From the NCBI RefSeq assembly GCF_002081825.1, contig NZ_MUKU01000044.1, forward strand, positions 1-39,897: a DNA stretch of 39,897 nucleotides. Reading direction: 5' to 3'. Positions 170-34,357 of the stretch are shown here, piece after piece. Positions within the stretch are counted from its first letter, which is position 1. Each line of letters opens with the position of its first letter. The position numbers and the translations under genes are program-made. The notes beneath the pieces were generated by a model. It was given only the letters and a program-made list of their open reading frames with translations. It was not told the origin of the DNA and made no database searches. This DNA comes from Chromobacterium haemolyticum. GTDB lineage: Bacteria; Pseudomonadota; Gammaproteobacteria; Burkholderiales; Chromobacteriaceae.

Positions 170-309
170 GAACGTGTTTACGATTTCGCGAGCGAGGGGG
201 AGACAAGGCGAAGACGGCTGAGAAAGCGGAATGTACGCGTGGTACATGAGCATTTCGAAGGTGTTCTCAACGCTGTATCGCCGAAGCGCAGCAGATCGTA
301 AACAGGTTC
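170..309 (+). repeat. Repeat A, copy 1 (MITE-like)
   Basis: A 140-bp element starting GAACGTGTTTACGAT and ending ATCGTAAACAGGTTC, flanked by TTA on both sides (167-169, 310-312), as expected for a 3-bp target duplication. The ends are inverted repeats of about 17 bp. The middle carries AAGGCGAAGACGGC and a GTAC-N5-GTAC palindrome-like core. The six-frame translations here are not genes: the same sequence recurs seven more times in this window, always between genes. The left TTA is shared with the IS5-family end. Confidence 0.85.
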
Positions 310-312
310 TTA

Positions 313-432
313 GTCCGCTAAGACCCGCAACAATACCTCGAAAAGGACCTGAGTCAAGGCGCGCCGCCGTAGGCAATACCAGTCATACGAAAAGAAGACG
401 CAAGGCAGGCCTTGGGATTTTGTTAGCGGGTC
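313..432 (+). repeat. Repeat B, copy 1 (Correia-like MITE)
   Basis: An element of about 120 bp starting GTCCGCTAA and ending TTAGCGGGTC, so the ends are imperfect inverted repeats. It follows repeat A1 with one TTA between them, and the same A-TTA-B arrangement recurs at 18016-18270. The core has CCTGAGTCAAGGCGCGCCG, an AGTCATACG segment and GACGCAAGGCAGG, matching copy 2 closely. The base run after the right end is CAA rather than TTA, so the outer target duplication is not intact. Confidence 0.75.
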
Positions 433-6643: not shown

Positions 6644-6778
6644 GAACCTGTTTACGATCTGCTCACGCGTCGTGAGACGCGCCCACGGTGAGCACCCCTT
6701 CGAAATGCTCATGTACCGTGTGTACACTCCGCTTTCTCAGCGGTTTTCGCCTTGTCTCGCGAGATTGTAAACACGTTC
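6644..6778 (-). repeat. Repeat A, copy 3 (inverted)
   Basis: A 135-bp copy in the opposite orientation to copies 1 and 2, with ends GAACCTGTTTACGATCT and AGATTGTAAACACGTTC. It is preceded by TTA and followed by TAA, so the two flanks differ. Together with copy 1 it brackets the fimbrial operon as an inverted pair. Confidence 0.85.
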
Positions 6779-16329: not shown

Positions 16330-16469
16330 GAACGTGTTTACGATCTCGCGAGCCAAGGCGAGACAAGGCGAAAACGGGCGAAAAAGCGGAATGTACACGT
16401 GGTACATGAGCATTTTGAGCTCGGTTTCAACGCCGTATCGCCGACGCGCAGCAGATCGTAAACAGGTTC
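16330..16469 (+). repeat. Repeat A, copy 4
   Basis: A 140-bp copy with ends GAACGTGTTTACGATCT and AGATCGTAAACAGGTTC. The left flank is TAA (16327-16329) and the right flank is TCA (16470-16472), which is the stop codon of the neighbouring permease gene read on the minus strand. The unequal flanks suggest recombination between two copies. Confidence 0.88.
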
Positions 16470-17982: not shown

Positions 17983-18015
17983 CTGGGGATACGGATGGAA
18001 AAACGCGCCGTCTTA

Positions 18016-18155
18016 GAGTCTGTTTACGATCTCGCGAGCTAGGGAGAGACAAGGCGAAAACAAGCGAAAAAGCGGAATGGTCAAGCGGTACATGAGCATT
18101 TTGAACTCGCTTTCAACGCCGTATCGCCGACGCGCAGCAGATCGTAAACAGGTTC
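18016..18155 (+). repeat. Repeat A, copy 5
   Basis: A 140-bp copy with ends GAGTCTGTTTACGATCT and AGATCGTAAACAGGTTC, flanked by TTA on both sides (18013-18015, 18156-18158). The intact 3-bp duplication agrees with an undisturbed insertion. It lies inside the ABC transporter operon, opposite to the direction of transcription. Confidence 0.9.
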
Positions 18156-18158
18156 TTA

Positions 18159-18270
18159 GAGCCGCTAAGAAAACCTCGCAGAGAACCTGAGCCAAGGCGC
18201 GCCGACGCAGGCAGTACAAGTCGTACGACAAGGAGGCGCAACGCAGGATCAGGGGTTTTGTTAGCGGGTC
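18159..18270 (+). repeat. Repeat B, copy 2 (Correia-like MITE)
   Basis: A 112-bp element starting GAGCCGCTAA and ending TTAGCGGGTC, flanked by TTA on both sides (18156-18158, 18271-18273). The right TTA is also the stop codon (TAA on the minus strand) of the binding-protein gene. The core has CCAAGGCGCGCCGACGCAG, then an AGTACAAGTCGTACG palindrome-like centre and CGCAACGCAGGATCAGG. As far as I recall the Correia consensus of Neisseria, this order of blocks is very similar, while the ends are different. Confidence 0.8.
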
Positions 18271-19074
18271 TTAGCTGGCTTCGCCGATTTTGAAGTCCCT
18301 AGGCAGCGGCGCCTTGGCGGCCGGGCCGAACCACTGATTGTAGATCTTGGCAGCCTGGCCGGATTTTTCCAGTTCCAGCAGGCTGTCGTTCACCGCTTTC
18401 AGCAGACGCGCTTCGCCCTTGGGCAGGCCGATGGCCTGGTATTCGCGAGTCAGGGTGAACGGCGCCAGTTCGAACTTGGCCTTGTCCGGCGCGTTGGCCA
18501 GCAGCGCGGCCAGCTTGGAACCGTCCTGGCTGATGGCCTGGACGTTGCCGTTGCGCAGCGCGGTGAAGGCCAAGGGGGTGTCGTCGTAGGCCACTACGGT
18601 GGTCTTGGGGTATTTGTCGCGCAGGTTCACTTCCTGGGTAGTGCCCTTGTCCACGCCCACGCGCAGTCCGGCCAATTGCTCCGGCTTTTGCAGCGAACCC
18701 TTGCGGGCGATGAACTGCTGGCCGGAGGCGAAGTAGGGCAGGCTGAACGCCACTTGCTTTTTGCGCTCGTCGGTGACGGTGAAGTTGGCGGCTACCAGAT
18801 CCGCCTTGCCGGACACCAAGAGCGGCACGCGGTTGGCCGGATTGGTGGGGATCAGGCTGAGTTTGACGCCCAGCTTCTTGGCGATGTGCTGGGCCACGTC
18901 CACGTCCAGGCCGGAGATCTGGCGAGTCTTGGCGTCGAGAAAGCCGAAGGGCGGGTTGCTGTCGAAGGCGGCGACGCGCAGCACGCCGGCTTTCTTGATG
19001 TCGTCCAGACGGTCGGCCCAGGCGGCGCCGGCGGCGGTGCTCAAGGCGATGGCCAATGCGATGGCGTGTTTCAT
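18271..19074 (-). CDS. Amino-acid ABC transporter substrate-binding protein
   Basis: The protein has 267 residues and is a periplasmic solute-binding protein of the type-3 amino-acid family. The signal peptide is MKHAIALAIALSTAAGAAWA. Family motifs are LRVAAFDSNPPFGFLD, GLDVDVAQHIAKKLGVKLSL, ADLVAANFTVTDERKKQVAF and LRVGVDKGTTQEVNL. The substrate is probably an amino acid such as glutamate, aspartate or glutamine, but this cannot be decided from sequence. The start at 19074 is chosen because it begins the signal peptide; the frame extends to 19155 without meaning. It precedes the two permease genes on the same strand. Its TAA stop borders repeat B2. Confidence 0.9.
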   Translation of the reverse strand: MKHAIALAIALSTAAGAAWADRLDDIKKAGVLRVAAFDSNPPFGFLDAKTRQISGLDVDVAQHIAKKLGVKLSLIPTNPANRVPLLVSGKADLVAANFTVTDERKKQVAFSLPYFASGQQFIARKGSLQKPEQLAGLRVGVDKGTTQEVNLRDKYPKTTVVAYDDTPLAFTALRNGNVQAISQDGSKLAALLANAPDKAKFELAPFTLTREYQAIGLPKGEARLLKAVNDSLLELEKSGQAAKIYNQWFGPAAKAPLPRDFKIGEAS

Positions 19075-19378
19075 GATGATGCCCCTTGTCTGAAGACGCG
19101 CCGCGGGTTTCGTTCGCGCCGTTTGGCGACGCGTTTTCAGAAGATGCCGGCGCATCGTGATTCCGAGAAATTTTCTGCCATGGATAAGCCCATGACATGC
19201 GATGGAGTGATGCTAAGGCATCCTGCAAATTCTTGGAAATTATTAAAAATTAGTCTTATATATTAATTTGTTTTTATTGTGTGATTTTCCTCATCGGAAC
19301 AATGCCTTGTCCAAATCGAGGCAGTGGCGACGGCGGGCCGATATTTTTGTTCGAGGTAGGATTGCCAAACAATTTCCT
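19075..19378. other. Intergenic region upstream of the binding-protein gene
   Basis: No gene is supported here. An 11-bp inverted repeat, CTGAAGACGCG (19090-19100) and CGCGTTTTCAG (19130-19140, one mismatch), would form a stem in the leader of the binding-protein mRNA just before its ribosome site. An AT-rich stretch (19229-19285) is the likely site of the divergent promoter for that gene, but no clear -35/-10 pair could be chosen. Confidence 0.4.
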
Positions 19379-25509: not shown

Positions 25510-25639
25510 GAACCTGTTTACGATCTGCTGCGCGTTAGCGATACGGCGTTGAAAATCCCTTCGAAATGCTCATGTACCGTATGTACATTCCGCTTTTTCG
25601 CTTGTTTTCGCCTTTGCTCGAGAGACTTTGAACAGGCTC
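25510..25639 (-). repeat. Repeat A, copy 6 (inverted)
   Basis: A 130-bp copy with ends GAACCTGTTTACGATCTGC and GACTTTGAACAGGCTC. The left flank is TAA (25507-25509). The right flank is TCA (25640-25642), the stop codon of phnE on the minus strand. The unequal flanks recall copy 4. The right end AACAGGCTC equals the IS5-family terminus at 158-166 more closely than the other copies do. Confidence 0.88.
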
Positions 25640-31940: not shown

Positions 31941-32085
31941 GAAGCTGTTTACGGTCTGTTGCACTTCGTGGCGCGTCACACGGTGAGTACCTCCTTCGAA
32001 ATGCTCATGTACCACGAGTATATTTCGCTTTCTCAGTGGTTCTCGCCTTGTTCCGCCTTTGCTCGCGAGACTTTGAGCCAGGTTT
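31941..32085 (-). repeat. Repeat A, copy 7 (inverted)
   Basis: A 145-bp copy with ends GAAGCTGTTTACGGTCTG and GACTTTGAGCCAGGTTT, more diverged than copies 1, 4, 5 and 8. Flanks are TTA (31938-31940) and TCA (32086-32088), so they differ. With copy 8 it brackets the orphan adhesin gene as an inverted pair. Confidence 0.8.
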
Positions 32086-33340: not shown

Positions 33341-33483
33341 GAGCCTGTTTACGATCTTGCGAGCTAAGGCGAGACAAGGCGAAAACGGCTGAGAAAGCGG
33401 AATGTACAAGTGGTACATGAGCATTTCGAAGCGGCACTCACCGAGCCACGTTTCACGACGCGCAGCAGATCGTAAACAGGTTC
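33341..33483 (+). repeat. Repeat A, copy 8
   Basis: A 143-bp copy with ends GAGCCTGTTTACGATCTTG and AGATCGTAAACAGGTTC, flanked by TAA on both sides (33338-33340, 33484-33486). The equal flanks fit a 3-bp target duplication with TAA instead of the TTA seen at copies 1 and 5. Confidence 0.9.
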
Positions 33484-34357
33484 TAAGGCCATCATGGCAA
33501 GGCTGGTCCGTGGATGACATGGCGGGGGAAGACAAGCGGGCCTACTTGGCGAGAGAAGTGCGAGGAAGAGTTGGGGATAAGGCCCGGCGCGGCAGATAGA
33601 CCGCCATTGATATTTGTCATATTTCCTTAACCGGTTTCCGGATAGGATTCGGACCGTGTGGTTTTTGTCGTGCGGCCCATTGTTTTTTGGGGCGCTGCAA
33701 CCATCTGCTCCTCATTCGCCCGCCGCCGCTTTCCACTGGCGCGGCCTGGACTGTCCCCAGCCTCCCTGTTGCCGGCGGCATCTTAGTCTTGTTCATTTGT
33801 TTTCGAATCCAACAGTTCCATCCTGTTTGTTTTCCTAAATTTTCACAAACGAAATCTGTTCTAATGTCATTAATCATAAGATTGGTTTATTTAAATCTAA
33901 ATGGCATTTTTGGGGATGGAGCATAGATGGGCCGGGGTAGGGGAGAGATGGGGGAGAAGCAGAAAATGGAGAGGTTGATCGGCGCCGGCATGCCAGTTCC
34001 CTGTCTACATGGATTTTAATAATTTTATTGATTTAACAGAAGCTTAGCGTTTGCTTAGCATGGGGAGGTGCGGGGGAAAGGCAAAAAAAATGCGCGGTAC
34101 CGTTAGGTCCGCGCCAAGTCTACAAAGGAGAAATAGAGGAGAAACTATCAAGAAGCAATTGCTGCATCTCAACGAGAACGAATTATCCAGATTGCGGTAT
34201 CGAGTGTCAACATGTTGTTTTTCGCAAATGTGTGAAATTATAATTTTCTGTCGCGCATCTGGTACATCGCGGCCGAGGCCGCCGCTGTCGCGGCGCACCA
34301 TGGCCGTCGCAGCTGTGCCAAAATAGCGGTTTTCCGATTGCCGCAGGATTCCCCTTC
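33484..34357. other. Long intergenic region, AT-rich in part
   Basis: No gene is well supported in these 874 bases. The part from 33800 to 34060 is AT-rich and has no long frame of normal codon use. At 34136-34141 a strong ribosome-site-like GAGGAG stands 5 bases before ATC (34147), which opens a frame reading IKKQLLHLNENELSRL and then a Cys-rich stretch (STCCFSQMCEIIIFC). A normal start is missing, so this is at best a dead or unusual small peptide gene. The promoter of the gene at 34358 should lie near the end of this region but was not identified. Confidence 0.4.

What the first reader, a model, noticed from the sequence alone, without database searches (positions are those of the whole stretch)
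18159..18270. Repeat B resembles the Neisseria Correia element in its core but has different ends
B (also 313-432) has blocks CAAGGCG, CGCAGGCAGTACAA, TCGTACG, CAAGG and GCAACGCAGG in the same order as the Correia repeat, which I recall from memory, around the same GTAC-spacer-GTAC centre. Its ends (GACCCGCTAA/TTAGCGGGTC) are unlike the TATAGTGGATTAA end of Correia elements. Repeat A also has a GTAC-N5-GTAC centre and CAAGGCG blocks. This suggests a wider family of repeats in Neisseriales with a conserved core and exchangeable ends, perhaps because the core has a function such as binding IHF or RNA folding.
Basis: partly seen in the sequence, partly recalled or inferred. Interest (0 to 1): 0.75.

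Follow-up and report, generated by a model that had tools for sequence, protein, structure and literature searches.

The report
Shared hairpin core in bacterial repeats
The repeat is a small mobile DNA piece that wears the ends of a transposon around a folded core, and the same core sits inside the long-known Neisseria "Correia" and pneumococcal "BOX" repeats, so repeats long treated as unrelated seem to share one old working part.

Summary
B (18159-18270) is a mobile element: close relatives have the empty site, and its left 19 bp (18 identical) and right 17 bp are the ends of an 863-bp IS5-type element found in 14 copies in a related genome, with the same TTA/TAA duplication. Inside lies a hairpin core: two conserved internal loops (AAGGC/AACGC and GCAGRCA/GRCAA) around a stem that changes sequence but stays paired, topped by GTAC-N5-GTAC. 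A covariance model trained without the genus Neisseria or Firmicutes finds this core in N. gonorrhoeae (106 copies, Correia elements), Streptococcus pseudopneumoniae (15, BOX), Avibacterium, Clostridia, and 89 of 300 genomes of the window's order. Ends differ between genomes while the core stays. Pairing statistics point to selection on one folded strand. What the fold does is unknown; RNA bound or cut by a general host factor is my best guess (RNase III about 1 in 4). Repeat A shares the layout, but homology is unproven. None of the papers listed by ten library searches links Correia and BOX by a core; conservation of boxA across bacteria by hybridisation was already reported.

The parts
18156..18158 (.). 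left target-site duplication TTA of B (also the right edge of the neighbouring repeat A)
   Evidence: empty site with a single CTTAG in G928 and G925
18159..18177 (+). left end of B, 18 of 19 bp identical to the left end of the 863-bp IS5-type element of G931
18177..18262 (+). hairpin core with inner arms (R2 model match, 73.1 bits, E 1.8e-17)
18194..18198 (+). internal loop 1, 5' side AAGGC
   Evidence: sequence; conservation
18199..18206 (+). inner stem, 5' side GCGCCGAC
18207..18213 (+). internal loop 2, 5' side GCAGGCA
18214..18226 (+). apical hairpin GTAC-N5-GTAC
18227..18231 (+). internal loop 2, 3' side GACAA
18232..18239 (+). inner stem, 3' side GGAGGCGC
18240..18245 (+). internal loop 1, 3' side AACGCA
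18254..18270 (+). right end of B, identical over 17 bp to the right end of the same IS
18271..18273 (.). right target-site duplication TTA, which is also the TAA stop codon of the gene on the minus strand
18271..19155 (-). neighbouring gene, family 3 solute-binding protein (SBP_bac_3)
313..432 (+). second, degenerate copy of B (R2 match 339-424, 28.5 bits, E 3e-5)
18012..18159 (+). repeat A copy directly left of B; inserted too; membership in the core family unproven

Best explanation
B is a non-autonomous mobile element made of two modules. Module 1 (shown by sequence): short ends that are those of an IS5-type insertion sequence of the same genus, so that its transposase can be expected to move B and leave a 3-bp TTA/TAA duplication. 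Module 2 (shown by sequence): a hairpin core that is older than any one set of ends and recurs in Correia elements, BOX elements and many unnamed repeats. Strongly supported by statistics, without correction for relatedness: selection keeps one strand of the core able to fold, with two sequence-specific asymmetric internal loops. Inferred (about 0.6): the folded strand acts as RNA rather than as single-stranded DNA. Inferred (about 0.25): the conserved loops position a widespread double-strand-RNA protein, RNase III first of all, whose cutting of transcripts through the element makes insertions near genes tolerable. How both ends are exchanged together is not shown.
For: Mobility: in the genus sample 17 of 19 genomes (own included) match the joined flanks; 14 run straight through the site, own, G929 and G936 are split by A and B (six of the genomes aligned with the window). 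TSD identical on both sides in 10 of 12 own-genome copies looked at, of 30 fetched (L002 and L024 differ; L026 reads TTAA on both sides). Ends: 14 of 14 PF13340 loci of G931 carry the 15-bp B ends 862-863 bp apart; one copy read in full has GAGCCGCTAACAAAACCTC / GACCCGCTAACAAAACC. End exchange: of 24 elements with the same shoulder (AGCGAAGCGGTTCTGG type) most have B-type ends or variants of them, but L090, L112, L120, L126 and L139 have other outermost ~16 bp at both ends. Core: A2, 46 copies: 83.5% of cells paired against 61.1% shuffled, 326 double changes against 108, registers slid by 1-3 columns 30-42%. R2 from A2 finds 106 copies in N. gonorrhoeae, 95 in N. bergeri, 119 in Streptococcus sp. 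121, 15 in S. pseudopneumoniae, 18 in Avibacterium, 34 in a Clostridia MAG (up to 150 candidates scored per genome). Strand: G.U 89 against A.C 41, G.A 94 against U.C 21; sequences with GU>AC 29 against 8, GA>UC 37 against 2. Loop 2 swaps A.G for G.A: 109 and 28, against 10 A.A and 10 G.G and one T.A. RNase III binding and cutting is reported for Correia transcripts (PMC2649163 Background; PMC2229807 passages).
Against: No transcript of B was examined. Where a gene ends at the element, the structured strand is more often antisense to it (48) than sense (18), and between co-directional genes antisense 42 against sense 26 (134 placed, 53 dropped at locus edges, home-made gene calls; an earlier, smaller count gave 16 against 14); this is against a role inside the neighbour's mRNA. 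Paired arms could partly come from templated correction of palindromes rather than selection. G.T and G.A are also the milder mismatches in DNA (recalled), so the strand test does not separate RNA from ssDNA. In the window's own draft genome no ends of an IS were seen: by eye, the end pairs are B-sized or belong to two whole B copies. The IS is known here from one other genome, and an exact IS partner was found for B's ends only.
Confidence: 0.6

Rival explanations
1. The folded strand acts as single-stranded DNA: the element folds when one strand is exposed (replication, conjugation, natural transformation), the paired arms present double-stranded ends to a transposase, and the core is bound by a DNA protein.
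For: Strand-specific pairing fits ssDNA as well as RNA; orientation is not biased to sense with the neighbouring genes.
Against: No clear replication-strand bias: G253 14 minus and 14 plus in one arm, 14 minus and 8 plus in the other (p 0.40, arms set by GC skew); G205 and G936, cut at half length, p 1.0 and 0.33. B's 3-bp duplication is that of an ordinary double-strand (DDE) transposase (family knowledge).
Confidence: 0.25
2. No selection on folding: the core spread recently by horizontal transfer, and paired arms are kept by templated palindrome correction.
For: Palindrome correction is a known process (recalled) and would make double changes. Relatedness was not corrected for in the pairing counts.
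Against: Stems differ widely between genomes while loops stay, which is not recent spread; correction would turn the unpaired loops into pairs, yet they are the most conserved part; the G.U and G.A asymmetry is unexplained.
Confidence: 0.08
3. It is a host-serving 3'-end element (terminator or mRNA stabiliser) shared by descent.
For: Elements often sit at stop codons (66 gene ends abut an element).
Against: Insertion polymorphism within the genus; the TTA/TAA duplication explains stop-codon sites because it rebuilds the stop; the abutting gene ends are mostly antisense (48 of 66).
Confidence: 0.05
4. The core is conserved because it binds IHF.
For: Long Correia elements carry an IHF site (PMC2649163).
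Against: [quoted passage not shown]
Confidence: 0.02

Closest known systems
Correia repeat enclosed element (CREE, NEMIS) of Neisseria
   Same: Same core, loop for loop; TAACAAAA(A)CC in one of its end variants; short form 104-108 bp; long stem. R2 trained without the genus Neisseria finds 106 copies in N. gonorrhoeae.
   Different: Outermost ends TATAGYGGATTAA in CREE (PMC2649163 Methods) with a TA duplication (recalled), GAGCC/GACCC and TTA/TAA in B; B has no 26-bp Correia repeat and no IHF site.
BOX element (boxA + boxC) of Streptococcus pneumoniae and relatives
   Same: Copies in S. pseudopneumoniae are core hairpins (L213, L232, L153); the BOXA1R primer (PMC7291552) matches the core's 3' half with 2-3 mismatches of 22.
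   Different: Other ends (TATACTC...GAGTATA), Firmicutes, boxB inserts. The BOXA2R primer fits poorly (7-8 mismatches at the adjoining place in L213 and L232; in L153 its best place lies elsewhere).
IS5-type element of 863 bp in the same genus (G931)
   Same: Ends (18 of 19 and 17 of 17 bp) and target duplication as in window B.
   Different: Carries a transposase in two frames; B has no gene. The core was not looked for in the IS beyond reading its 863 bp.
Beta-proteobacterial repeat element (BRE) of Bordetella and Comamonadaceae (PMC3110155 section 14)
   Same: About 90 bp, repeated, overlapping genera (Acidovorax, Delftia, Rhodoferax), found through the small RNAs bprJ1/bprJ2.
   Different: Its sequence is not in the text held, so identity with the core was not tested.
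REPINs / BIMEs
   Same: Palindromic repeats; some gamma copies here are inverted pairs (L237, L240-L243, L245, L246).
   Different: Core sequence and size differ (recalled for REPINs); no RAYT link was looked for.

Membership tests
IS5-derived MITE | terminal ends shared with an IS of the same lineage | tested here: met
   15-bp ends in 14 of 14 PF13340 loci of G931; window B left 18 of 19 and right 17 of 17 bp as in the copy read in full
IS5-derived MITE | same target-site duplication as the IS | tested here: met
   TTA/TAA(TTAA) identical in 10 of 12 B copies looked at and in 8 of 10 IS copies printed; site without insertion in 14 genus genomes
IS5-derived MITE | mobilisation by that transposase | not testable with these tools
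   needs an experiment
CREE | 26-bp Correia inverted repeats (four published patterns) | tested here: not met
   no match in the window at up to 5 mismatches
CREE | characteristic core | tested here: met
   alignment 0 of 2000 shuffles as high; R2 matches both
CREE | RNase III processing of transcripts | not testable with these tools
   reported for CREE, not for B
BOX | boxA and boxC modules with TATACTC-type ends | tested here: not met
   B's ends are GAGCC/GACCC
BOX | shares the core hairpin | tested here: met
   R2 finds 15 matches in S. pseudopneumoniae, best E 6.3e-11; three of four copies read have BOX-type arms (L153, L213, L232), one does not (L222)
core superfamily: repeat A | significant match to the core model | tested here: inconclusive
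   R2 on A 13.2 bits, E 0.46; a model of A matches the core element in 1 of 30 other loci searched, L088, E 0.0095; alignment not significant; motif order in 0 of 20000 shuffles, but chosen after seeing A
BRE | BRE sequence | not tested
   sequence not in the section read
Rfam families | match at gathering score, or E up to 1, on the core | tested here: not met
   gathering: window and 18 loci; E up to 1: 9 and 16 loci; the one row that covers a core is a microRNA model in L257, 34.3 bits against a threshold of 90

The most novel reading that the evidence does not exclude
One ancient structured nucleic-acid motif, probably an RNA with its own still unknown protein partner, rides inside small transposons across Proteobacteria and Firmicutes and changes its transposon ends to fit whatever insertion sequence its host carries; Correia, BOX and dozens of unnamed repeats are its local forms.
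Probability: 0.4. Interest if true: 0.95.

Novelty: new variant of a known kind. Interest (0 to 1): 0.85.

Why it matters
Correia (first described 1986) and BOX (1992) repeats are known orphans, described as found only in Neisseria or nearly absent outside a few streptococci, with unproven movers and unknown core function. A shared, covarying core makes their function one question that can be tested once for many bacteria, and offers a sequence basis for boxA being conserved so widely. IS ends around a constant core suggest how such elements pass between hosts with different transposases, and the IS partner found in the window's genus makes mobilisation testable.

Tried and rejected
IHF site as the reason for core conservation: absent from B and A. 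Replication-strand bias: a first count that put the origin at base 1 in three genomes gave a pooled p of 0.037 (50 of 51, 24 of 25 and 39 of 39 matches typed in; G429, also searched, was not counted); GC skew of sampled stretches showed that this was wrong for G253, and the corrected G253 count is not significant. Sense orientation with neighbouring genes: no bias in the first count (16 antisense, 14 sense), antisense excess in the larger one (42 against 26). Autonomous partner in the window's own genome: no IS-sized end pair seen by eye (the assembly has 88 contigs, so IS copies may be collapsed; its transposases were not searched). Partner IS for other end types: of 15 genomes, 5 have PF13340; only G942 has a related IS (GAGACTGTTTCAAAA ends against GAGACCGTTTAAGAA of the element L126), not identical. 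Rfam: nothing on the core at threshold. Conserved position at groEL: noticed by eye in a few loci, not counted.

Literature: 10 searches, several with more papers than were listed (for example 20 of 52, 20 of 79, 15 of 11,396); in the listings, and in the parts read, no paper joins Correia and BOX by a core. PMC2267715 (passages) lists the NEMIS core, BOX and Bordetella families as separate stem-loop families. PMC7291552 (passages) says that hybridisation showed boxA to be highly conserved, in a passage that cites Koeuth 1995, which is not held. Read: PMC2649163 (outline with abstract, sections 3, 10, 16); PMC3110155 (passages, section 14); PMC3049150 (passages, section 5); passages only of PMC5039591, PMC10969869, PMC2229807, PMC2267715, PMC7291552.

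Full report
1. The observation. B lies at 18159-18270, flanked by TTA on both sides, with a decayed copy at about 313-432. The two are 81% identical over 104 nt (family D7). In both places B stands directly right of repeat A. The window is one contig of a 5.29-Mb draft genome, by its relatives probably a Chromobacterium (inference), where B has at least 42 places and A at least 44 of 133 nt or more, with 381 first-look candidates of which 40 were scored. Similarity of window B to a fetched Correia copy is far beyond shuffles: 67 against a maximum of 32 in 2000.

2. Anatomy. Thirty own-genome copies align over 112 bp. As RNA the element is one long hairpin (typed consensus -50.3 kcal/mol, z -6.0; window copy z -4.6; its other strand z -2.5; second copy z -2.5). 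From the outside in: IS-like ends that pair with each other; outer arms; internal loop 1 (AAGGC opposite AACGCA); an 8-bp inner stem; internal loop 2 (GCAGRCA opposite GRCAA); GTAC paired with GTAC; a short loop (4-6 nt by the pattern used).

3. Relatives. A covariance model of the 30 own copies (R1) hits 74 of 300 genomes of the window's order at E 0.01. In the taxonomy used this order should be Burkholderiales with Neisseriaceae inside (recalled).

4. The stem test. The pattern fixes only the loop-2 and apex letters, so the inner stem and outer arms are free. Among 105 unique copies, none picked, the inner stem is paired in 71% of cells; partners shuffled among copies give 51% (maximum 54% in 1000 shuffles). 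For a cleaner test and a training set I picked 46 of the 80 loci listed, one copy each. The 34 left out: 14 Neisseria, 4 Firmicutes, Avibacterium, Cardiobacteriaceae, and 14 other loci, some from organisms already in, two (L119, L166) with long inserts near the stem, the rest not chosen for no recorded reason. On a structure written by hand 83.5% of cells pair (shuffled 61.1%), 326 cells show changes on both sides (shuffled 108), and no slid register exceeds 42.1%. RNAalifold on its own finds nearly the same structure. On the 30 own-genome copies alone covariation is almost nil, as expected of close copies. In A3, 111 matches from 93 loci across phyla, even the GTAC helix shows changes on both sides; that alignment was fitted to the model, so it counts for less.

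5. Which strand. In A2, G.U pairs (89) outnumber A.C (41) and G.A (94) outnumber U.C (21), against shuffled expectations of 151, 112, 131 and 75; 29 sequences have more G.U and 8 more A.C; 37 have more G.A and 2 more U.C. In the inner stem alone, before this count, A.C (37) exceeded G.T (23) at positions 2-7 when all copies were taken, and 13 G.T against 11 A.C in well-paired stems; the asymmetry comes mainly from the outer arms, 60 against 9 when well paired. On the other strand the outer-arm positions would be the worse mismatches, so selection seems to see the strand written here. In loop 2, columns 36 and 54 swap A.G for G.A (109 and 28) rather than A.A (10) or G.G (10), plus one T.A, over all loci; in A2 alone 31, 9, 4 and 2. 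Relatedness is not corrected for in these counts.

6. Correia and BOX. R2, built from A2, finds 106 copies in N. gonorrhoeae (150 of 844 candidates scored), close to the "over 120" Correia elements of PMC2649163. Of nine Neisseria copies tested for the published 26-bp ends, six (N. gonorrhoeae, N. bergeri) have them and three, from a Neisseria MAG, do not, so Neisseria holds copies with other ends. In S. pseudopneumoniae R2 finds 15 copies; of four that I read, three have TATACTC...GAGTATA-type arms (L153, L213, L232) and one (L222) does not. The BOXA1R primer printed in PMC7291552 fits the three with 2-3 mismatches in 22, the BOXA2R primer poorly. I infer that boxA and boxC are the two halves of the same hairpin and that boxB sits at its apex; no boxB-bearing copy was examined. 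PMC3049150 (section 5) had noted that boxB folds apart from boxA and boxC. Own-genome copies L019 and L025 carry a 22-bp insert near the apex.

7. Breadth. R2 at E 1e-6: 89 of 300 genomes of the order, 55 of 134 genera. Class sample at E 1e-3: 47 of 321, 44 of them outside the window's order. Sample of the phylum of Streptococcus sp. 121: 9 of 299, the centre genome included; so most genomes there give no hit. Weak hits of 30-45 bits are often deviant forms with a longer apex (L256-L264) and need care.

8. Ends. In the genus, 14 of 14 PF13340 loci of genome G931 carry B's two 15-bp ends 862-863 bp apart. One copy read in full has open stretches of 152 and 160 codons in different frames, ends GAGCCGCTAACAAAACCTC and GACCCGCTAACAAAACC; the 3-bp flanks are identical in 8 of 10 copies printed. 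B keeps even the GAG/GAC asymmetry. Elsewhere the same shoulder is found with other ends: one search prints 24 elements, most with B-type ends or variants, but GAGACCGTTTAAGAATG (L126), GAGGTTGTTTCAAAATG (L120), GAGGCTGCTGCAAAATG (L139), GGAGACGCCAGCAAAACG (L112) and a further one in L090 are different. Both ends differ together, so ends seem to be replaced as a pair. A second IS match is only approximate (G942).

9. Movement. With the window's flanks joined as a query, 17 of 19 genus genomes match, own included; 14 run straight through the site, among them G928 (95% identity) and G925 (90%); own, G929 and G936 are split by A and B. In the sequences aligned, CTTAG stands once in the empty site of G928 and G925 and CTTRG at each of the three junctions when filled. 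The right TTA is the TAA stop codon of the minus-strand gene at 18271-19155, a family 3 solute-binding protein; the duplication rebuilds the stop, which may explain why such sites tolerate insertion. Over all loci 66 gene ends abut an element, 48 antisense and 18 sense.

10. Repeat A. It shares CAAGGCG, GTAC-N5-GTAC and CAACGCC in order, and inserts at the same target. By R2 its best copy reaches 13.2 bits, E 0.46, at noise level; a model of A (R3) finds 8 copies in the window, but among 30 other loci it touches a core element only in L088, at E 0.0095. I leave it open.

11. Mechanism. What the sequences show: a mobile element with the ends of an IS and an old folded core, with pairing statistics that point to selection on one strand. 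What is inferred: that the fold acts as RNA (0.6) and that a general double-strand-RNA protein, RNase III first, is its partner (0.25), by analogy with Correia transcripts. The antisense bias and the lack of transcript data speak against a role in the neighbour's mRNA and are reported as such.

12. Prior knowledge. Correia repeats were said to be found only in Neisseria (PMC2649163 section 3). BOX repeats were seen in S. pneumoniae, at lower density in S. mitis, with related ones in S. suis (PMC3049150 passages). boxA conservation by hybridisation is old (PMC7291552 passage). A beta-proteobacterial repeat (BRE, PMC3110155) may be a partial earlier sighting. Among the papers listed by ten library searches I saw none that joins these by a common core; the library lacks most subscription papers and several lists were cut, so this is not proof of absence.

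Noticed in passing
window 34086-34175 (-): Match to Rfam RF02877 NmsRb, a Neisseria metabolic switch small RNA (96.9 bits, gathering 52).
   Followed up: no
window 186-293, 1566-1673, 6660-6770(-), 16346-16453, 18032-18139, 25526-25623(-), 31957-32068(-), 33357-33467: Eight copies of repeat A in 40 kb; an abundant family (381 first-look candidates in the genome, 40 scored) whose inner stem varies between copies.
   Followed up: partly
L237, L240, L241, L242, L243, L245, L246: In some other genomes of the class two cores in inverted orientation lie 20-38 bp apart inside one longer outer inverted repeat.
   Followed up: partly
L212, L254, L264: Core elements in tandem, same orientation, in a Clostridia MAG and two genomes of the Streptococcus phylum sample.
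   Followed up: no
L019, L025 (near apex), L079, L086: Inserts and short tandem expansions at or near the hairpin apex.
   Followed up: no
L127, L131, L148, L150: Core copies that by eye sit just beyond a GGM-type groEL tail, on the opposite strand; this reading was not checked by any search.
   Followed up: no
G000:C78:11592-11667 and 182622-182700: Pairs of B-type ends only 76 and 79 bp across, in size like the 69-73 bp Correia type.
   Followed up: no
L319 (G942): PF13340 locus with GAGACTGTTTCAAAA ends and TTA on both sides, related to but not identical with the ends of the core element L126 of the same genome.
   Followed up: partly
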